This document shows, piece after piece, positions 31,079 through 45,888 of a stretch of 64,000 nt of DNA. Numbering within the stretch: the stretch's first letter is position 1; each line of letters starts with the position of its first letter. Source of the stretch: Candidatus Poribacteria bacterium (lineage in GTDB: Bacteria > Poribacteria > WGA-4E > WGA-3G); the NCBI GenBank assembly GCA_022825825.1, contig JAJDWA010000002.1, positions 124,001 through 188,000 on the forward strand, in the 5' to 3' direction. The position numbers were made by a program, and so were the translations under genes. Below the pieces are notes generated by a model that worked only from the letters and a program-made list of their open reading frames with translations, made no database searches and was not told the origin of the DNA.

Positions 31079-31126
31079 CAGGACTTACGCATTCCCTCGC
31101 TTGCGGGGGGATAAAGGGGGGTAAAA
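31079..31126 (+). repeat. CAGGACTTACGCA plus G/C-rich palindrome, copy 1
   Basis: The 13-nt CAGGACTTACGCA is followed by CCCTCGCTTGCGGGGGG and ATAAAGGGGGG. The same 13-nt sequence, again followed by CCCCTAAA/AAGGGG-type repeats, occurs at 59997-60009. This looks like the remains of a small mobile repeat. Confidence 0.6.
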
Positions 31127-33890: not shown

Positions 33891-33919
33891 TTGATTCAAC
33901 CTGTTTGTTATGTTATAAT
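33891..33919 (+). promoter_or_regulatory. Promoter of the ImmA/IrrE-DUF4411 pair
   Basis: TTGATT (33891-33896), exactly 17 nt, TATAAT (33914-33919). The transcript should begin near 33926, ~60 nt before the ATG. Confidence 0.75.
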
Positions 33920-33986
33920 ATATTTAACACAAGTCCGTATTTGCAAGTGTATAGATATAGTTTGTTTAAATGTTGAGGTTACTATC

Positions 33987-35177
33987 ATGGCTGAGTATAT
34001 CAATGGGATTAATCCTGAAATCCTCAAATGGGCGCGCGAAAGTTGCAACTACACTGTTCAAGAAATTGCAGCATTTTTCAAGAAGGATGTTTCAATTATT
34101 GATGAATGGGAGTCTGGAGAACGTGCGCCAACTTATGTACAGCTTGAAAAGCTTGCTGGTAAGTACAAACGTCCTGTTGCCTTATTTTTTTTATCCAATC
34201 TACCAGAAGAACCAAAATTGGAAGAGAAACTTGCACTGAGAAGTCGTGATGTGAAGAAGTTAGAACCCAGAACACTTTTTCTGTTTCGCCAAGCTTATTC
34301 ACGACAACTTTCATTGATGGAGTTGAATAACGAAAAAAATCCATCAGAAGATTTAATCTTTCGGAATATTCAACCTACATCTTCTAATATTGATCTAAAC
34401 GAAGAATATGCATTTGAATTGGCAGAAAGAAGTCGAGTTTATCTGAAAATCAGTGTTGAAATGCAATCAAATTGGGAAAATGAGAAAATTGCGCTTGAGA
34501 ATTGGCGGAACCACATTCAGGATAAAGGTGTTTTTGTCTTCAAAGATGCGTTTAGAGACGACTTAGTAGATGGATTTTGCCTATTACATTATGAATTTCC
34601 AATCATTTATCTTAATAATAGCCGCCCTTCTTTAATTCAGGTTTTCTCATTAATTCATGAGTTAGGACATATTTTAATAGGTAAGAATGGTATCACACCC
34701 GATATTGCTGGAACGATAAAAACAGAATCCGCTGAATTGGAGATTTTCTGCAATCAATTTGCACACGAATTTCTTGTGCCAACAAAAGACTTTAAGAAAC
34801 GACTAAACTTTTCTGAATACAATGACGAAGTAATTCAAGAGTTGGCTAAATTCTATAAAGTTAGTCATCATGTTATCCTATTGAAACTAATCAAGATTGG
34901 AATACTACCACAAAAAATTTATAATCAGAAAGTCAGAAAATGGGCAGAACAACATGAATACTTCAAACAAAAGGAAGGGAGTAATAGAGAAATAGGAGGT
35001 GCAGATTACTATAATACACAATTAAGTTATTTAGGTCACAAATACACAAGTCTTGCGTTTGAAAAATACCATCAGGAGTTAATTTCCTTTGAAAAACTTG
35101 CTGATTACTTAAATGTCAAAGCAAAACATTTAATAGAACTTGAAAAACGATTCTTACGTAAGGCAATCAATAGATGA
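33987..35177 (+). CDS. HTH-ImmA/IrrE metallopeptidase family antitoxin-like protein
   Basis: A 397-residue protein that combines an XRE-type helix-turn-helix (residues ~5-60, YTVQEIAAFFKKDVSIIDEW) with an ImmA/IrrE M78-type metallopeptidase domain holding LIHELGHILIG near residue 225, the HExxH zinc site. Such proteins act as repressors that can be cleaved or cleave partners, and many serve as the antitoxin of XRE-COG2856 toxin-antitoxin pairs. GAGG lies ten bases before the ATG at 33987, and the gene stop overlaps the next start by 4 nt. The downstream DUF4411 protein is the presumed toxin. Confidence 0.85.
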   Translation: MAEYINGINPEILKWARESCNYTVQEIAAFFKKDVSIIDEWESGERAPTYVQLEKLAGKYKRPVALFFLSNLPEEPKLEEKLALRSRDVKKLEPRTLFLFRQAYSRQLSLMELNNEKNPSEDLIFRNIQPTSSNIDLNEEYAFELAERSRVYLKISVEMQSNWENEKIALENWRNHIQDKGVFVFKDAFRDDLVDGFCLLHYEFPIIYLNNSRPSLIQVFSLIHELGHILIGKNGITPDIAGTIKTESAELEIFCNQFAHEFLVPTKDFKKRLNFSEYNDEVIQELAKFYKVSHHVILLKLIKIGILPQKIYNQKVRKWAEQHEYFKQKEGSNREIGGADYYNTQLSYLGHKYTSLAFEKYHQELISFEKLADYLNVKAKHLIELEKRFLRKAINR

Positions 35178-35647
35178 TATATGTATTTGATACAAATAGT
35201 TTTAGAGAACTTGGCAGTTATTATCCTGACCAATTTCCATCTTTTTGGCGAGAATTCAATCGAGCAGTAGAAGATACTAAAATTATTACTTCAGTGAGAG
35301 AAGTCTACAGAGAATTGGAAATCTATACACGACATGCTCATATAATCACTTGGGTGAAAGAACATAGAAATATATTTAGAAAAACAACCGTAGAAGAAAT
35401 GAATTTTGTTAATCAGATTTTATCAACAAAGAATTTCAAATATATGCTTAGACACGAACATTTATTTGAGGGCAAACCGTGTGCGGATCCCTTCATTATT
35501 GCTGCAGCTAAATCTATTGATGGTTGTGTAGTCACCGAAGAATCAAAAAAACCGAACTCACCAAATATACCAAATGTGTGTGAACATTTTAACATTGAAT
35601 GCACAAACCTGCAAGGATTCATGGAAAGAGAAGGCTGGACATTCTAA
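35174..35647 (+). CDS. DUF4411 PIN-domain toxin
   Basis: A 157-residue DUF4411 protein, a PIN-fold RNase-like family. It starts MIYVFDTNSFRELGSYY, with the first catalytic Asp in FDTN. Later acidic positions are visible in TSVREVYRELE and PCADPFIIAAAKS (the second Asp of the PIN core), then GCVVTEESK. PIN toxins cut RNA with a Mg2+ ion. Its ATG overlaps the ImmA/IrrE stop (ATGA), so the pair is translationally coupled, as is usual for toxin-antitoxin systems. A/T-rich compared with the metabolic genes, as for acquired DNA. Confidence 0.83.
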   Translation: MIYVFDTNSFRELGSYYPDQFPSFWREFNRAVEDTKIITSVREVYRELEIYTRHAHIITWVKEHRNIFRKTTVEEMNFVNQILSTKNFKYMLRHEHLFEGKPCADPFIIAAAKSIDGCVVTEESKKPNSPNIPNVCEHFNIECTNLQGFMEREGWTF

Positions 35648-36620: not shown

Positions 36621-38103
36621 TCCGATAACAACAAAGGAGGACATTTATGGCAACAAAAAAACGCACTGAAAAAGAGATCCAAGACTACCGACACGACGCA
36701 AAACGAAAGAACAACCCACCTGCAGGCATTGCAGCACAAGGCAAAATACACGAAAAACCGAAGCAGGAATATGCATACAACCCACACCTCCCGCCAAACC
36801 TCCGATTTGACCCAAAAGGTGATGCCGACAAACTCCCTGAACTACTTGAAGAAGCACAGCAAAGACCGCTCACTGCTGCAGAAACAAAAATAATCGCAAA
36901 CGCGCTAAGACATCATGAACCGTGGCTGGAATGGGCAGGTAAACAGGAAACAAAATCTTTTGCCGTGGATCCGGTTGCACTGCATATCCACGAACGCGTG
37001 AGTGCGAAAGCCATTTTAAAGGTAGCAGAACGCGAAAACGTCCAACGCAGCCTCTTTGCCGACCCACAGCAAGAATATAACGAAGCCGTCGATTTTTACC
37101 AACACGACGTGGATTGGGCAAACCGACTTATCCTCGGTGATAGCCTTACCGTCATGAGTTCCCTTGCACATCGCGAAGACCTTGCTGGCAAGGTGCAAAT
37201 GATTTACATTGACCCGCCCTATGGAATCAAGTTTGCCTCTAACTTTCAACCGACCGTCTTTCAACGTGATGTGAAGGATAGAGAACAAGATTTGACTCGC
37301 GAACGGGAACAGATTAAGGCATACCGTGACACGTGGACTCTCGGTGTTCACTCCTATCTCGCTTACCTGCGCGATAGACTGATTGTTGCAAAAGAACTGT
37401 TGACAGATAGCGGCAGCATTTTTGTGCAGATTAGTGATGAGAATATTCATCGGGTGCGGTCTGTGATGGATGAAGTTTTTGGGGGTGAGAATTTTGTATC
37501 TTTGATTACTTACAAGGTTACAGGGGGAACACAACAAAAAGGGGCACCACGTAGAATCTCCGACTACCTTGTGTGGTACGCAAAGGACAACGAGTCTCTA
37601 AAATTTCATCGCCTTTTTCTTGACAAAGAAGCGAACAAAGATACTACTTTCTCCGATGTTGAATTTTCAGATGGAACACGTCGATCCTTAACAAAAGAAG
37701 AGAAAGAAAATCCCAATTTATTACCTAAAAATGCAAAGTTCTTTATGACTCTTCCTATGCACGGTCAAGGCGCTGGAGAAAATACTCTGAGACATTTTCA
37801 AGGGAATCAATACGGGATTCCTGAAAATGGACACTGGAGACATACTTTAGAGGGATTCAATCGTCTCGTCAGTGCCAATAGGGTTCTTGCCAACATAAAA
37901 GCATTAAGGAGTGTCTACTATTTTTCTGACTCGCCAGTCTCGGAAATTACGACAACTTGGAATGACACGGCACCAGAGACCAATAAAGTTTATGCTGTTC
38001 AAACGAGTCCAAAAATCATTCAACGCTGTTTGTTGATGACTACTGATCCTGGCGATCTTGTTCTTGATCCGACTTGTGTGCGTAAAGGGACAATGATTTT
38101 AAG

Positions 38104-38307
38104 ACCCCCCTTTATCCCCCCGCAAGCGGGGGGAAATACTGGCACATCTCCCACGCTTACGGGAGGAATTGGAGGCACATCCCCCCACGCTTACGAGGAA
38201 AAGATAGATCGCCCCCAAGACCCATTCCCCCACGCTTGCGGGGGGGTAGGGGGGGTAAATCCCAAAAAGCATCTCTCGCTTGCGAAGGAACAAAGGGGGA
38301 TAAATCC
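38104..38307 (+). repeat. C/G-rich palindrome cluster within the intein
   Basis: About 200 nt built from several related units. The clearest is CCCCCCGC-AA-GCGGGGGG at 38116-38133. Others have cores CACGCTTACGGG, CACGCTTGCGGG and CTCGCTTGCGAAG. It contains C6 and G7 runs (G7 at 38240-38246 and 38249-38255). Both relevant reading frames are free of stops here, so a single slip can join or separate them. It interrupts the normal spacing between intein block A and the following strand. Confidence 0.8.
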
Positions 38308-38535
38308 CCTATCGAAAACCTCAACCCCGGCGACTGGGTTCTTTCACATACCGGTAATCCACGTCGCATTCGCCGAGTAATTCGCAAGCGATATCGCGGA
38401 CAACTCATCGGCATTCAGCACAACCAATCCCCTACAACACTTTGGGTAACAGCAGATCATTATATTCTTTGCAAACAGCGCATTCTCTCTTATGAGACAG
38501 ATCGTGCATGGGGCAAAGTCCCTCCAAAACACTTC

Positions 38536-38850
38536 CAGCGAGCACGTGAACTCCGAAAAGAGATGACTTTTGCAGAAAAAACCTTATGGCAGCAACTCCG
38601 AAGTAGGCAACTCGGTGTCAAATTTAGAAGGCAACATCCAATTGGGCCCTACATTACTGACTTTTATGCCCGTGATATAGGACTAATTATTGAAGTTGAT
38701 GGGGACACACACTTCACGCCTGAAGCCGAAGCCTATGATTCCGTACGCACCGATTACCTGCATCAGTTAGGATTAACCGTCCTACGTTTCACGAACCATG
38801 AAATTTTTCAGCGTCTTGATGGTGTCCTGTCCCAGATTCATCAGGCAATT
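38536..38850 (+). other. DUF559 (Vsr-like, EDxHD-type) nuclease domain inside the intein
   Basis: Residues RARELRKEMTFAEKTLWQQL open a canonical DUF559 domain. The catalytic set expected of Vsr-like/EDxHD nucleases is visible: Glu in TFAEKTLW, Asp in YITDFYARD, Glu/Asp in LIIEVDGDTHF, His in the same segment, and Asp in AYDSVRTDYL. The domain ends FTNHEIFQRLDGVLSQIHQA. It sits precisely between splicing blocks B and F, the homing-endonuclease position. It would make a site-specific cut at intein-less copies of motif I. Confidence 0.8.
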
Positions 38851-39709
38851 CGTGCTGTTCATCCCTCTAAAACACCATTTCAACAATGGCGCAGATCAGA
38901 CACCTTACGAATTGGTGACACCGTGTACTTTGATGTCCACTGCAAGCCGGTAGAAATTGTCAATATCCAATACACAGATGTTGATGAAGATGTCTACGAC
39001 CTTGAAGTTGAAGCGGACCATTCTTATCTTACTGAGGTATGTGCAGTGCATAATTGCGGAGGCGGTACCACCGCTTATGTCGCCGAACAGTGGGGTAGAC
39101 GGTGGATTACCATTGATACCAGTCGCGTCGCTGTCGCCTTAGCACGACAACGTCTCTTGACAAGTAGTTTTGAGTATTACCAACTCAAAGACGAATCGAA
39201 AGGCATTGCAGGCGGATTCGTCAACAAAAACGTCCCGCACATAACCCTCAAGAGCATTGCCCAAAACACCGCACTTGACCCAATCTTTGAAAAGCATGAG
39301 CCGATTCTCAAAGAGAAGTTAGAAACGTTGAACAGTGCTTTAGTGGAAGTTACGCAAGAAATCTGCACCAAACTCCTTGCTAAACTTGCAGAGAAGGAAA
39401 CACGTGAAGGAAAAAGATCTATCACGGATGCTGACCGTCGGCGTTGGCAGCTGCCTGAGACAGCATGGCAGGAGTGGGAAGTACCCTTTGACACTGATCC
39501 GGACTGGCCCGAAGCGTTACAAAATGCGTTGACAGATTACCGCGAGGCATGGCGCGCAAAGATGGATGAGGTCAACGAATGCATCGCCGCATCCTCCGAA
39601 GGTGAGGAGTTAGTCGATCAGCCAGAAGTGGACAGAAAGCGGATAAGGGTAAGCGGTCCCTTCACCGTAGAAGCAGTGCAACCCGCAGAAGAATCGCTCC
39701 ATACTGAAT

Positions 39710-39728
39710 CCCCCCTTGACAAGGGGGG
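39710..39728 (+). repeat. C/G palindrome in the C-extein coding sequence
   Basis: CCCCCCTTG-A-CAAGGGGGG, a 19-nt perfect palindrome, followed by CGAGGGGGG. It is in frame (PLDKGGEGG) and sits in a low-complexity linker, so it did not break the gene here. Confidence 0.75.
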
Positions 39729-40606
39729 CGAGGGGGGTTCACCTATCGGCGGTGAACCGATAGAAGAGCTGGACACTTATGAAGATAAAGAAGGGGACGA
39801 GGCAGTTAATGCAGAAGCATATCTTGACAAGATGATTCGTTTGCTTAAAAATGATGGTGTGCGGTTCGCAGAAAACAAAACGATGAAATTTGCCACACTT
39901 GATCCGATTGAAGGCGATGTACTTCACGCTGAAGGTGAATGGGAAACAGATGACGATAAACAACGTCTTGTCGCTGTTGTTTTCGGTCCGCAACACGGTC
40001 CTGTGACTTCGGTGTTAGTCGAAGATTGCTTGCCGATTGCTTCGCGCAGAGGTTATGATGAATTGGTTTTTGCAGGATTCAGTTTTGATGGTGCATCGCA
40101 AGCGATAATCCAAGAAGATCCGAATCCAAGAGTTCGTGCCCACATGGCTTATATCAATCCAGACGTTGCGATGGGAAAACTGCTAAAGGAAACACCAACA
40201 AGTCAGCTGTTTACCGTGTTTGGACTGCCACGTACGGAACTCAAAACAACGGACAGTGGAGAATATATTGTCAAAATGGAGGGTGTAGACATCTATAATC
40301 CTGTAGACAACACGGTGAATTCTGCTGGTGCGGATAAGGTAGCAGCGTGGTTCGTTGATTCTGACTATAACGGTCGCGATTTCTGCATCACCCAAGCCTT
40401 CTTTCCCGATAAAAGTGCGTGGACTAAAATCGCCCGCGATCTCAAAGGCGTGGTTGACCCTGAGTGTTTTGAGAAGTTTAGTGGTACAGAATCTTTGCCG
40501 TTTGCTGCAGGTGAGCATGCGTGTGTTGCTGTCAAGGTGATTGATCCGCGTGGGAATGAGGTGATGCGGGTGCATAACCTACGTGATCTGGGGTATTAAA
40601 AGTCCC

Positions 40607-40685: not shown

Positions 40686-41651
40686 ATGTCTCAAGAGAAA
40701 ACCCATGACCTACACGACTTCATGCAGCAGCTACAGGACAGAATGGCTGCACATTACAGGCAGATTCAAAAACGAGCATCTGAAGATCCGGGTACCGCTG
40801 GAGACCAAGGCGAGGAGAATTGGTGTGATCTATTAAGTGGGTGGCTTCCACGCACCTATGAAGTCGTCACAAAAGGAAGAATTATCAGCCAAGATGGACA
40901 AGTAAGTCCACAAGTTGACGTGTTAGTTCTAAAGAGTATATATCCTAAGCAGCTAATTGACGAAGGTCAAAAAATATATTTAGCTGCTGGTGTTGCCGCA
41001 GCATTTGAATGCAAAACTACGCTGACAGCAGCAGATATTGAGAAAACCGTGAAAAATTGTGTAAAAATCAAAAACTTGTATCCTGTCCGGGAAGGGACAC
41101 CTTACAAAGAATTGCATGCCCCTATTGTTTGCGGACTGTTAGCGCATTCTCATTCTTGGAAAGCCCCTAACTCAACACCTGAGAATAATATTGAGCAAAA
41201 GTTACATGAGTCTGATGCCTCTTATGTTTCACATCCTCGCTTAGGGCTTGATATACTTTGTGTTGTGAATCTTGCTACATGGACCTTGAGTAAAACGACG
41301 TTTATTGATGCACAGCAGATGTCCCAGTGGCTTTCGGAACAAAAAACAGTGGGAGGAGCATTGAGTGTATATATTGGACACATGTTATCTCCAAGTTATC
41401 AAGCTGAACATTTTACTCCAGTTGGTACTCTGATTGCTAATCTATCGCGACGACTCGCGTGGGAAGATTCAACACTGCGTGACCTTGCTGACTATTATCG
41501 GGTCACAAACATGGCTGGCAGTGGGCATGGAAACATCCGTATTTGGCCTGACTCCATATACACTAAAGAGGTTAAGCGCCGTTTTGAGACTGATAATTTG
41601 TCAACTGGTAAGGGTTCATTTTGGGATGAATGGAGCTCCCTTTTCTACTAA
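40686..41651 (+). CDS. DUF6602-like protein of the restriction-modification locus
   Basis: A 321-residue soluble protein. The first half resembles DUF6602: MQQLQDRMAAHYRQIQKRAS helix, GEENWCDLLSGWLPRTYEV, then QVDVLVLKSIYPK and VAAAFECKTTL. The spaced Asp (QVDVLVL) and Glu-x-Lys (FECK) fit a PD-(D/E)XK-type nuclease core. The second half has no recognised domain. TAGGAGG precedes the ATG. It lies between the methyltransferase and the operon that ends with the helicase, so it is probably an accessory nuclease or specificity factor. Function inferred from context and motif only. Confidence 0.7.
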   Translation: MSQEKTHDLHDFMQQLQDRMAAHYRQIQKRASEDPGTAGDQGEENWCDLLSGWLPRTYEVVTKGRIISQDGQVSPQVDVLVLKSIYPKQLIDEGQKIYLAAGVAAAFECKTTLTAADIEKTVKNCVKIKNLYPVREGTPYKELHAPIVCGLLAHSHSWKAPNSTPENNIEQKLHESDASYVSHPRLGLDILCVVNLATWTLSKTTFIDAQQMSQWLSEQKTVGGALSVYIGHMLSPSYQAEHFTPVGTLIANLSRRLAWEDSTLRDLADYYRVTNMAGSGHGNIRIWPDSIYTKEVKRRFETDNLSTGKGSFWDEWSSLFY

Positions 41652-42227: not shown

Positions 42228-42895
42228 GTAGTGCTCTTATCGAGTTAGAAAGTCATCCTGAACGAGTCAAAGCACTCACAAAAGAAGTGCTTTTGGATGT
42301 ATTTAGCGATAAAACACGTGATTTGGCAATTAGGTACACTGCTATAGAAGTCCTGGCTGCAAGGAAATCCCCGTTATTGGTTTCTCCCGTGCTAACATTT
42401 TTAAATTCTATTGTTGATACAGAAATTGATTGGGGAGCGTCATTTGATGCAAGTCGTTATCCTTTCCTTTTTTTAGATAGACTCAGAAGAATCAGAAATG
42501 AGGAAACTTATCAAGGACTCAAAACTTTCCTTAACCGTTTGATAGAAGAAAATCCTGAGAATAGGAATACCTTCTTGTCTTGGACAATATTTTCACTTAC
42601 AGATGTTGGACTTAAATTGGACAGGGGTGACTCTGCTGATATGTTGAAAAAGGTGATACCCGATTTGAAGAATTTAGAACAAAATTCAACAATGTTAGAG
42701 ATATTAGTTGACTATTTTGATAAGTTTCAAGAACCTGAAGGTATAAAGGAAGTCTTGACGAATGATTTAACAGATAACCTACCCGACGTAGAAGAAAAAT
42801 GTTTAGAGTTATTGCAAAAGCACGATCCCAACTTTGTAAAAGAATGGAAAGCACAAAAAGAAACTGCTAACACAGAAAATGAGGAATCTTCATGA
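42224..42895 (+). CDS. HEAT-like helical repeat protein in the R-M locus
   Basis: A 223-residue all-helical protein. Repeated Leu-rich helical pairs (RDLAIRYTAIEVLAARKSPL, VSPVLTFLNSIVDTE, TYQGLKTFLNRLIEE and LEILVDYFDKFQEPEG) suggest ARM/HEAT-type repeats used for protein interaction. No catalytic motif. It overlaps the gene before (ATGA) and the helicase after it (ATGA), so the three are made together and presumably form a complex. Not recognised as a known R-M subunit. Confidence 0.65.
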   Translation: MSSALIELESHPERVKALTKEVLLDVFSDKTRDLAIRYTAIEVLAARKSPLLVSPVLTFLNSIVDTEIDWGASFDASRYPFLFLDRLRRIRNEETYQGLKTFLNRLIEENPENRNTFLSWTIFSLTDVGLKLDRGDSADMLKKVIPDLKNLEQNSTMLEILVDYFDKFQEPEGIKEVLTNDLTDNLPDVEEKCLELLQKHDPNFVKEWKAQKETANTENEESS

Positions 42896-45888
42896 ACAAA
42901 GACCAACTTCAACTCCCAATCCAACCTGTTGAACAACCTATCTTATGCAGCCCGTACGAAGAACCAACTACACATTGGATTTACGACACACAAACAGGTG
43001 AGGCATCCAAGAATCCAGGACGCCGCGAGGCAGGATATTGGTACAAAACGGAACGCACTGGCAGCGATCAAATCAGTCTTTTCCAAGAGGAACAGCGAGA
43101 TGATCTACCGTTAGTGAACGCACTCCGCGATGATGTCCGGCGGTGGCGTAATTCAAAATACGAAAGTGCTACAAATGTAACAAAAGAATTGCTGCGGCAT
43201 TGGGGACGCGAAGACCTGTTAAGACGACTCTTTTTCTGTCAACGCGAAGCAGTAGAAACAATTATCTATCTCGTTGAAATACTTCAGAGAGAGAAGGGAC
43301 CACGCTTTACGCCTAAATTTTCCAAAGATGACCTTTCCAAATTAGTTGATTCCCCTAACAATCTCGATATTCCAGATTTGATTCGTTACGGTTGTAAAAT
43401 GGCAACCGGCAGCGGCAAAACTGTTGTGATGGCAATGCTCATCGCGTGGGCATTTTGCAATCGTGGCAAAGTGTCTTCTGATGAACGTTTCCCTGCAGCA
43501 GCACTTGTTGTCTGTCCGAACCTTATAATTAAACAACGGCTGCAAGTGTTACGCCCTGAGGATAACGATAACTATTACGATGAATTTGAACTCATTCCAA
43601 CAAAACTCCGTCCGTTGCTGAATAGTGGGAAGGTGTTGGTTACCAATTGGCATCAATTTGCCCCTGAATCCGAACATAAAGAAGGCGGGCAGACCTACGC
43701 AGTTGTCAATAAAGGCGAGGAAACACCAGACGTTTTTGCCAAACGTGTGTTAGGTGAACTCCATGGCCGCGCGCCGATTATGGTGCTAAACGATGAGGGA
43801 CATCACGCCTATCGTCCTGCACCGACTGAGGAAAAACTCTCTGCAGAGGAAAAGCGGGAACGCCAAGATGCTACCGTGTGGGTAGAAGGTTTGGATAAGA
43901 TTAACGTCGGGTGTGGTATCAAATTCTGTGTTGACCTTTCAGCGACACCGTTTTACATTAAAGGCAGTGGTTACCGTGAAGGTTCTCCGTTCCCGTGGCT
44001 TGTGAGTGATTTTGGATTGGTTGACGCAATTGAAAGCGGTATAACGAAAATACCTCGACTGCCAGTAAGTGATACCACCGGGAGACCTGAACCGAAATAC
44101 TTTCGGCTGTGGAAAACGATTGTTGATGATCTTTCGGCTGTAGACACAACGCCAGGAAGACGGACAAGAACACCGAAACCGGATGCCATCTATCGTGAGG
44201 CAGAACCAGCACTGCTTACACTTGCCAGCCAGTGGACAGAACGTTTTGGATATATTGAGGAAGCATCAGATGCCCAGGAAAAAACACCGCCAGTCTTGAT
44301 TATCGTATGTGCCAATACTGATATTGCAGAGATTTTTTATCAAAAAATTTCTGGTGAACAAGTCGAAGATGTCGTTGACGACAGCGGCACAAGCGGAAAA
44401 AGTAAAAAGAAAAATAAGACGAAAACAGTCTATGGACGAGGTACTATTTTCCCCGATTTTTTTTCCAATACCGAAAACGTAAAACGAACGCTGCGTATTG
44501 ACAGCAAAATGCTGGCACAAGCGGAAAGTGTCAATCCAAATCAGAGCACATCACAAGCCGCAGAAGCACTCAGAGAAATTGTTGCAACAATAGGAAAACC
44601 TGGTAAGCCAGGCGCACAAATAAGATGTGTTGTCTCTGTCGCAATGCTAAACGAGGGATGGGATGCAAACAACGTAACGCATATTTTGGGGTTACGTGCT
44701 TTTACCAGTCAGCTGCTCTGTGAACAGGTAGTCGGGCGCGGGTTACGCAGAATGAATTATACACCAGACCCAGAAACAGGGTTGCTTACCGAGGAATATG
44801 TTGATGTTTACGGTATACCGTTTTCGGTTATCCCGTTCAGAGGTAGACCCTCAAAAGGCCGCGAACCAGATGACAAACCGAAAAATCACGTCAGGGCATT
44901 ATCTGATCGTGAAGATTTTGAGATACGATTTCCGATTGTAGAAGGGTACGCCTTTGCCCTACAAAAAAACGAAATCAAGGCAGATATTGATTCAACGGAA
45001 CCGCTCAGCATCCAACCGGAACTGAATCCCACTGCCCTCTATGTCAAACCTGCTGTGGGATACGAAATTGGTACACCTTCAGCATCCGGTCCGGGGGGTA
45101 CTCTCCTTCAAGACCGCGAAGAATATTACCGAACCACACATTTACAAGCCATCCAATTTGAGATTGCGCATCGAATTGTTCTCAAATTAGTCGGGGACAG
45201 ACAAACCGCCCCAGATCCGGACAGCAATCCAAAACTCAGATTGTCTTCTCGACACCGTCTTTTTCCGCAAGTCTATAAGCATGTTGATGCTTATGTTAGA
45301 ACAAAGGTTGACTTCCACGGATGTGACCCTTGTGAACTCGGTCAAGAGAAATACGTTACGCTAATTGTAGAACGTTTGATGACTGCTATTCAACCCGATG
45401 AGACGAAAGGTGAAATTCCGATGCTGCCGATTCTCAACCGCTATGCCCCGATTGGCACATCGACTGATGTTGACTTTCTCACGGCGCGGCCATGTGTGGC
45501 AACAGAACGGAGTCATGTGAATCAGGTAGTGCTGGATACAGGCACATGGGAACGTGCTGCTAAATTTCGGCTTGAGCAATCTGATGTTGTAGCATGTTAC
45601 GTGCGGAACGACCACCTCGGACTCGGCATTCCGTATGAATACAACGGTTTTTCTCATCTCTACGAACCAGATTTTATTGTACGACTCACAAATGGAGTCC
45701 ATCTCGTTTTGGAAATAAAGGGTTTTGAACCGGATCAGGTTCACGCGAAACATGCAGCTGCTAAAAGGTGGGTGTCCGCGGTGAATAATTGGGGTAAACT
45801 GAAAAAATGGGAATTCCATGTTTGCAAGGACCCACAATTGCTGGGTAAAGAATTGGCAGAAATCTATAACAAATTAACTGAGGCATAA
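42892..45888 (+). CDS. Type III-like restriction enzyme, DEAD-box helicase/nuclease (BPTD_3080-like)
   Basis: A 998-residue SF2 helicase with a C-terminal nuclease. Walker A is MATGSGKTVVMAMLIA near residue 172, motif II-type NDEGHHAYRP near 303, motif III SATPFYIKG, and helicase C has NEGWDANNVTHILGLRA and QVVGRGLRRMNY. The C-terminus holds EPDFIVRL and LVLEIKGFEPD, a PD-(D/E)XK catalytic core. The N-terminal HWIYD and FFCQREAVETIIYLVEI resemble BPTD_3080-type restriction enzymes. With the methyltransferase upstream it forms an R-M system. It is the last gene of the coupled 41742-45888 operon. Confidence 0.88.
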   Translation: MNKDQLQLPIQPVEQPILCSPYEEPTTHWIYDTQTGEASKNPGRREAGYWYKTERTGSDQISLFQEEQRDDLPLVNALRDDVRRWRNSKYESATNVTKELLRHWGREDLLRRLFFCQREAVETIIYLVEILQREKGPRFTPKFSKDDLSKLVDSPNNLDIPDLIRYGCKMATGSGKTVVMAMLIAWAFCNRGKVSSDERFPAAALVVCPNLIIKQRLQVLRPEDNDNYYDEFELIPTKLRPLLNSGKVLVTNWHQFAPESEHKEGGQTYAVVNKGEETPDVFAKRVLGELHGRAPIMVLNDEGHHAYRPAPTEEKLSAEEKRERQDATVWVEGLDKINVGCGIKFCVDLSATPFYIKGSGYREGSPFPWLVSDFGLVDAIESGITKIPRLPVSDTTGRPEPKYFRLWKTIVDDLSAVDTTPGRRTRTPKPDAIYREAEPALLTLASQWTERFGYIEEASDAQEKTPPVLIIVCANTDIAEIFYQKISGEQVEDVVDDSGTSGKSKKKNKTKTVYGRGTIFPDFFSNTENVKRTLRIDSKMLAQAESVNPNQSTSQAAEALREIVATIGKPGKPGAQIRCVVSVAMLNEGWDANNVTHILGLRAFTSQLLCEQVVGRGLRRMNYTPDPETGLLTEEYVDVYGIPFSVIPFRGRPSKGREPDDKPKNHVRALSDREDFEIRFPIVEGYAFALQKNEIKADIDSTEPLSIQPELNPTALYVKPAVGYEIGTPSASGPGGTLLQDREEYYRTTHLQAIQFEIAHRIVLKLVGDRQTAPDPDSNPKLRLSSRHRLFPQVYKHVDAYVRTKVDFHGCDPCELGQEKYVTLIVERLMTAIQPDETKGEIPMLPILNRYAPIGTSTDVDFLTARPCVATERSHVNQVVLDTGTWERAAKFRLEQSDVVACYVRNDHLGLGIPYEYNGFSHLYEPDFIVRLTNGVHLVLEIKGFEPDQVHAKHAAAKRWVSAVNNWGKLKKWEFHVCKDPQLLGKELAEIYNKLTEA

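What the first reader, a model, noticed from the sequence alone, without database searches (positions are those of the whole stretch)
38075..39054. Intein in a DNA methyltransferase, with a DUF559/Vsr-like endonuclease in the homing slot
The methyltransferase motif I is interrupted exactly between DPT and CGGGTT. The insert starts with Cys and ends VHN followed by Cys, and has recognisable splicing blocks A, B (VTADHYIL), F and G. Between B and F lies a DUF559 domain with the Glu, Asp, Glu-x-Asp, His and Asp residues of Vsr-like/EDxHD nucleases. Inteins usually carry LAGLIDADG or HNH nucleases, and Vsr-like homing nucleases are rarer. Insertion into the AdoMet-binding motif of a restriction-modification methylase couples a selfish homing element to a defence gene, and splicing would gate the methylase's activity.
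Basis: partly seen in the sequence, partly recalled or inferred. Interest (0 to 1): 0.9.

Follow-up and report, generated by a model that had tools for sequence, protein, structure and literature searches.

The report
Frame-broken intein inside methyltransferase motif I
A self-splicing protein insert carrying its own DNA-cutting domain sits in the heart of a defence-system DNA methyltransferase of a Poribacterium, and in this genome a DNA hairpin lodged inside it puts its two halves in different reading frames, although its sequence still looks selected for function.

Summary
Window 38075-39054 encodes an intein in motif I of a Type III-like Mod methyltransferase of Candidatus Poribacteria (DPT | intein | C). 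The intein C-terminal model passes its cut-off, DUF559 scores E 7e-35, and 24 of 26 intein-free loci held read DPTCG unbroken, the other 2 being cut off before the motif. Four of 84 genomes of the phylum carry this allele. A fold model of an intact copy matches DUF559 3hrl, homing nuclease I-Bth0305I and several inteins.

The finding did not say why the frame needs correcting. A hairpin-forming repeat insert (about 38104-38298) between blocks A and B leaves the intein halves in different frames. A second species (G015) has the same 980-nt intein and break; two other genomes have in-frame copies. Since G000 and G015 diverged, the part after the break has evolved like coding DNA (29 of 43 changes at codon position 3; 0 of 5000 neutral simulations as conserved), while the insert has not. 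So the gene is probably still expressed, by frame slippage or in pieces. Splicing and homing were not shown.

The parts
36647..38074 (+). N-extein: N-terminal part of the Mod methyltransferase, with catalytic DPPY motif and variable target-recognition region, ending ...LVLDPT
   Evidence: PF01555 N6_N4_Mtase E 4e-22; PADLOC MTase_III E 4e-100; motif name recalled
38075..38103 (+). Start of intein with block A, CVRKGTMIL
   Evidence: Translation; CVRKGT in 4 of 4 copies
38104..38298 (+). Insert (ends approximate) holding a palindromic repeat and the frame break; arms 38106-38137 and 38224-38255. Not in G043; an insert with similar arms is in frame in G028
   Evidence: Inverted repeat 84% complementary; shared with G015; RNA fold z -3.99; arm pattern in 20 of 84 genomes
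38116..38137 (+). Runs of C and G forming heptamers of the slippery type (CCCCCCG, GGGGGGA, GGGAAAT) in the phase of the N-extein frame; no substitution between G000 and G015 in this arm
   Evidence: function inferred only
38299..38532 (+). Second part of the N-terminal splicing domain, with block B (LWVTADHYIL)
   Evidence: Hint_2 E 4e-4, below cut-off; T65, D67, H68 invariant in 4 copies
38533..38844 (+). DUF559 (Vsr-like, EDxHD) nuclease domain in the homing slot
   Evidence: PF04480 E 6.9e-35; fold match 3hrl TMt 0.89, I-Bth0305I TMt 0.68; boundaries as used
38845..39054 (+). C-terminal splicing domain: block F (VYDLEVEADHSY) and block G (CAVHN)
   Evidence: TIGR01443 26.9 bits, cut-off 15.6; solved chain 2jmz (MJ0781, recalled as the KlbA intein) E 1.7e-4 with a 16-sequence profile
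39055..40599 (+). C-extein: rest of motif I (CGGGTT) and the C-terminal part of Mod
   Evidence: PADLOC MTase_III E 1e-67; 24 intein-free loci continuous here
42892..45888 (+). Partner restriction gene of the same R-M locus
   Evidence: NCBIfam BPTD_3080 family restriction endonuclease 938 bits, cut-off 800

Best explanation
A mobile class-1-type intein with a DUF559/EDxHD nuclease domain occupies motif I of a Type III-like Mod gene. By inference, the nuclease cuts intein-free mod alleles near the DPT/C codons, repair copies the intein in, and Cys1, the block B and F residues, the terminal Asn and Cys+1 excise it so that the AdoMet-binding motif is rebuilt. In the window and in G015 a Poribacterial palindromic repeat lies in the loop after block A (the region of engineered S1 splits) and the reading frame changes across it. 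Shown: anatomy, allele distribution, shared frame break, and coding-type evolution of the part after the break. Inferred: that a fraction of translation or transcription slips back by one within the C/G runs of the insert, so that full-length precursor and active Mod are still made at a lower level. The anatomy alone I hold at about 0.95; the score below is for the whole statement with slippage.
For: Intein. Clean insertion site: 24 of 26 intein-free loci held, the other 2 cut off before the motif. In-frame copies in G043 (1270 aa ORF) and G028 (1290 aa). Shared frame break in G015: both inteins 980 nt, aligned without a gap. After the break, G000-G015: 43 substitutions, 29 at codon position 3; 15 amino-acid changes against 29.4 expected, 0 of 5000 neutral simulations that low; the insert has 26 substitutions with no codon bias. 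dN/dS 0.13 for the intein part and 0.08 for the C-extein. Insert arms 2 of 67 substituted against 24 of 128 in the rest, p 0.0015 (arms taken, test made after seeing the alignment). First frame and shifted frame are both open up to intein nt 216 in both genomes; 77 and 60 of 5000 shuffles are (limit chosen after the fact).
Against: The N-terminal intein model stays below its cut-off even for the intact copy (TIGR01445, 13.6 against 24.5 bits), as do the Pfam Hint models. The selection argument rests on one pair of genomes. Taken alone, the two Hint halves are only mildly more conserved than neutral (129 and 67 of 3000 simulations), DUF559 clearly (3 of 3000). In G015 the first frame meets a stop at intein nt 217, within the insert; my first shuffle test had wrongly treated it as open, and the shifted frame alone is open in 845 and 754 of 5000 shuffles, which is unremarkable. 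C/G runs of 5-7 are modest slip sites, and nothing in Rfam reaches its gathering score. In 4 of 6 pairs the intein is not significantly less diverged than the exteins, so recent homing is not proven.
Confidence: 0.5

Rival explanations
1. The intein and mod gene of the window are dead: the repeat insertion broke the frame recently and the gene has not had time to decay.
For: Two frames, and no Shine-Dalgarno-like sequence before the only early start codon of the second ORF (TTG 38236). Repeats of this family are scattered over several genomes.
Against: The break is shared by two species whose broken copies differ by dS 0.19, yet the downstream part kept dN/dS 0.13 and no stop; 4154 of 5000 neutral simulations acquire a stop. 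C-extein dN/dS 0.08, though part of that divergence may predate the break.
Confidence: 0.25
2. Phase variation: the C/G runs change length by replication slippage, as in phase-variable Type III mod genes, and both assemblies caught the same OFF state.
For: Several runs of 5-7 C or G in a stretch open in two frames; phase-variable mod genes are known (PMC3311624, abstract; PMC3498834, start of abstract in the listing).
Against: Runs are short, and both genomes have the same phase with a gap-free alignment; no length variation was seen, but only two copies were compared.
Confidence: 0.2
3. A natural S1-type split intein: ORF 1 ends with a ten-residue N-intein plus a tail, ORF 2 starts within the insert and supplies the rest; they trans-splice.
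For: The insert sits where engineered S1 splits with 11-12 residue N-inteins can trans-splice, 4 of 14 tested there (PMC3620165, abstract and passages).
Against: In the stretch scanned (38080-38700) ORF 2 has only TTG 38236 and ATG 38563 as starts, and G015 has the same two; the first lacks a Shine-Dalgarno-like sequence, while neighbouring genes 36647 and 40686 have one (three other neighbours less clearly). The second start would leave out block B. The N-piece carries a long tail.
Confidence: 0.08
4. Only the nuclease is kept: DUF559 is made from ATG 38563 and the splicing domains are relics.
For: DUF559 shows the clearest constraint (3 of 3000 simulations); an ATG stands near its start in both genomes.
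Against: Splicing residues are intact and the C-extein has dN/dS 0.08.
Confidence: 0.12
5. The frame break is an assembly or sequencing error in homopolymers.
For: C/G runs lie in the insert.
Against: Two assemblies with different sequence have the same length; the G015 contig has a k141 name as MEGAHIT gives (short reads, inferred).
Confidence: 0.06

Closest known systems
EDxHD (Vsr-like) homing endonucleases, type I-Bth0305I; Dassa et al. 2009 fractured genes (recalled; paper not held)
   Same: Catalytic fold and residues; fold match 3r3p E 8e-4, TMt 0.68; Vsr itself only weakly, E 0.2-0.3. Two reviews put EDxHD among six homing families, mostly of phage group I introns (PMC3984707, PMC3943268, passages)
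   Different: Here the domain is DUF559-type, closest to free-standing NGO0050 (3hrl), and lies in a bacterial chromosomal intein
Inteins in phage DNA methylases (PMC9957025, abstract and passages)
   Same: Selfish insert in a DNA methylase with sporadic distribution
   Different: Other methylase family; the passages seen name a LAGLIDADG endonuclease and no Vsr or DUF559; the insertion point here is motif I of a Type III-like Mod
Engineered S1 split inteins (PMC3620165, abstract and passages)
   Same: Interruption after about 10 residues, between two early beta strands
   Different: Natural repeat insert; trans-splicing not shown
Phase-variable Type III mod genes (PMC3311624, abstract)
   Same: mod gene with swapped recognition domains and nucleotide runs
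   Different: Runs lie inside an intein and length variation was not seen

Membership tests
Intein (class 1) | Insertion flanked by intein-free homologues with a precise gap | tested here: met
   24 of 26 intein-free loci held, the other 2 cut off before the motif
Intein (class 1) | Cys1, block B T-x-x-H, block F, terminal His-Asn, +1 Cys | tested here: met
   block roles recalled
Intein (class 1) | Curated splicing-domain models over cut-off | tested here: inconclusive
   C-terminal model yes; N-terminal and Pfam Hint models below
Intein (class 1) | Single frame through extein and intein | tested here: not met
   Not in the window or G015; met in G043 and G028
Intein (class 1) | Protein splicing | not testable with these tools
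   Needs expression
EDxHD / DUF559 nuclease | Family model and catalytic residues E, D, E-x-D, H, D | tested here: met
   residue roles recalled
Homing endonuclease | Cuts the empty allele and drives copying | not testable with these tools
   Only indirect: patchy presence, reduced silent divergence in 2 of 6 pairs
Type III R-M Mod | Mod-type methylase near a Res-type gene | tested here: met
   three ORFs lie between them
Natural split intein | Two separately initiated pieces that trans-splice | tested here: inconclusive
   Two ORFs exist, but a credible start for the second is missing

The most novel reading that the evidence does not exclude
The repeat inserted in the intein has become a conserved frame switch: making the methyltransferase needs both a slip of frame within the hairpin and excision of the intein, a double gate on a defence methylase, in a natural intein interrupted and kept in two frames at the S1 loop.
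Probability: 0.27. Interest if true: 0.8.

Novelty: new variant of a known kind. Interest (0 to 1): 0.58.

Why it matters
It shows a DUF559-type nuclease in a bacterial intein and an intein in the AdoMet motif of a restriction-modification methylase. A frame break that two species share while the downstream coding sequence stays under purifying selection is a testable case of recoding, or of natural splitting, inside an intein.

Tried and rejected
Viral relatives: no hit with the window protein and only weak hits within the DUF559 part with the alignment (6 loci). Phage and plasmid records hold partial matches only (3 and 38 records), none covering 80% of the query. Of the 15 other loci, 13 could be read at the matched frame and show no Hint domain by eye; L078 and L080 gave only short pieces; none was scanned with models. 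A known RNA family as the insert was rejected: two weak Rfam matches, both far under their gathering scores. A shuffle test counted the first frame of G015 as open although it stops at intein nt 217; one search replaces it, and I lowered the score of the best explanation (0.6 to 0.5) and of the novel case (0.3 to 0.27) for that reason. Paper searches (partial library, so no proof of absence from print): 'intein' with 'Poribacteria' 0; with 'DUF559' 1, a DUF559 gene in Thermosynechococcus, passages seen; with 'Vsr-like' and 'homing endonuclease' 4, listing only; with 'very short patch repair' 2, listing only; at least three of four intein/frameshifting terms 57, 15 listed.

Full report
Location and host. 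The window is part of contig C75 of genome G000 (5.14 Mb, 84% complete). The three best loci of the GTDB scan are named as Poribacteria MAGs. The gene is a Mod-type N6/N4 methyltransferase: PF01555 E 4e-22 on the N-part, PADLOC MTase_III on both parts. Downstream lie a DUF6602 protein with PD-DExK/NucC-like matches, two ORFs without a PADLOC match, and a BPTD_3080-family restriction gene.

The intein. Cys1 is at 38075 and the terminal Asn ends at 39054; the +1 Cys is the Cys of the methyltransferase motif. TIGR01443 passes its cut-off; the DUF559 match is strong. Hint_2, Intein_splicing and TIGR01445 are weak and below cut-off, also for the intact G043 copy. A profile of 16 sequences (4 inteins, 12 of 15 free DUF559 loci; L075, L078 and L080 left out) finds 3hrl (DUF559, E 2e-29) and 2jmz (MJ0781, recalled as the KlbA intein, E 1.7e-4) among solved chains. 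The AlphaFold model of the G043 intein is of middling quality (pLDDT 72, pTM 0.49). Foldseek gives 10 matches at E 0.001 or better: 3hrl (TMt 0.89), intein-like BIL domains, Prp8 inteins, PI-SceI and I-Bth0305I (TMt 0.68). Below that come gp41-1 and MchDnaB inteins (E 0.003-0.009) and Vsr (E 0.2-0.3).

Empty sites and distribution. Searching 84 genomes of the phylum with the C-extein gave 38 with a match at E 1e-20 or better, distant paralogues included. Of the 30 loci held, 24 read DPTCG without a gap, 4 bear the intein, and 2 start after the motif. The intein allele is in 4 of 84 genomes: G000, G015 (same genus), G028 (same family) and G043 (another family of the order). The intein C-terminal model passes its cut-off in 15 of 84 genomes, so other inteins exist in the phylum. 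Silent divergence at fourfold sites is lower in the intein than in the exteins for G000-G015 (p 0.024) and G000-G028 (p 0.003), not significantly for the other four pairs, one of which goes the other way (no correction for six tests).

The frame break. In G043 the intein is 798 nt and in G028 987 nt, both within one long ORF. In G000 and G015 it is 980 nt, and the parts before and after the insert are in different frames. The insert (about 38104-38298) carries a palindromic repeat whose arm occurs elsewhere: 5 matches in G000, the intein copy included, and matches in 20 of 84 genomes. Similar arms sit at the same place, in frame, in G028 (by eye). In the G043 model the place lies between strands 7-10 and 15-18. 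That is the region where engineered S1 inteins are split, between beta 2 and beta 3 with an N-intein of 11-12 residues (PMC3620165). In the genus, listed repeat copies mostly read GCGAGGG at the arm (GCGA in 9 of 9 of G003; exceptions with GCGGGGG: 2 in G006, 1 in G013). The intein copies of G000 and G015 read GCGGGGG, which is common in G043 and G028, but so does the one other listed copy of G015 (the list was cut). This hints, no more, that intein and repeat came from another family.

Selection after the break. Between G000 and G015 the part after the insert has 43 substitutions, 29 of them at third positions, and 15 amino-acid changes against 29.4 expected (0 of 5000 simulations as low); the insert has 26 substitutions spread over codon positions. 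Split up, DUF559 is clearly constrained (3 of 3000), the Hint halves mildly (129 and 67 of 3000). dN/dS is 0.13 (intein part) and 0.08 (C-extein). The C-extein figure may include time before the break; the intein figure does not, if the break is ancestral, as the gap-free alignment suggests. The arms of the insert are more conserved than its remainder (2 of 67 against 24 of 128, p 0.0015, tested after seeing the alignment), and they fold as a long stem in both genomes (z -3.99 and -5.72). Three heptamers of the X-XXY-YYZ kind stand in the phase of the first frame in both genomes. The first frame runs to intein nt 304 in G000 and stops at nt 217, inside the insert, in G015; the shifted frame is open throughout the insert in both. 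Both frames are open to nt 216 in 77 and 60 of 5000 shuffles, the shifted frame alone in 845 and 754.

Reading. The intein identity is firm, the homing function likely by family, and the frame break very probably real. How the gene is still expressed is open: slippage of ribosome or polymerase fits best, phase variation next, then nuclease-only expression or splitting; or it is a young pseudogene despite the substitution pattern. A single pair of genomes carries this argument.

Relation to the known. EDxHD enzymes are reviewed as one of six homing families, mostly of phage introns (PMC3943268, PMC3984707; passages). An intein in phage methylases is described (PMC9957025; abstract and passages). 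HEN domains in inteins are said to sit at one conserved site (PMC6801210; passages); DUF559, between blocks B and F, is compatible with that, while the repeat insert is in another loop. From recall only: Dassa et al. 2009 and Taylor et al. 2011 introduced the Vsr-like family.

Noticed in passing
L010 (G050), L075 and L073: DUF559 domains lie in frame inside larger ORFs flanked by repeat-like peptides, without a Hint domain visible by eye; L075 looks like an Eco57I-type methyltransferase (named by eye). This suggests that DUF559 can enter coding genes along with repeats.
   Followed up: partly
window 37490-38010 against L026: The presumed target-recognition region of Mod differs strongly between G000 and G015, while the N-extein before it has few amino-acid changes and the C-extein is 95% identical, as in swapped mod alleles.
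   Followed up: partly
window 39705-39740: A short palindromic repeat in frame in the C-extein (peptide SPLDKGGEGGSP), absent from the G015 copy.
   Followed up: no
window 31093-31121: Another copy of the repeat arm, two mismatches, seemingly outside genes.
   Followed up: no
L022 (G052) and L023 (G051): Other Poribacterial inteins, apparently in IMP dehydrogenase and SufB (hosts named by eye).
   Followed up: no
window 40686-41651: DUF6602 protein with PD-DExK/NucC-like matches between mod and the restriction gene.
   Followed up: no
window 33891-35647: HTH plus IrrE-type peptidase gene followed by a small ORF, arranged like a toxin-antitoxin pair; the small ORF was not searched.
   Followed up: no
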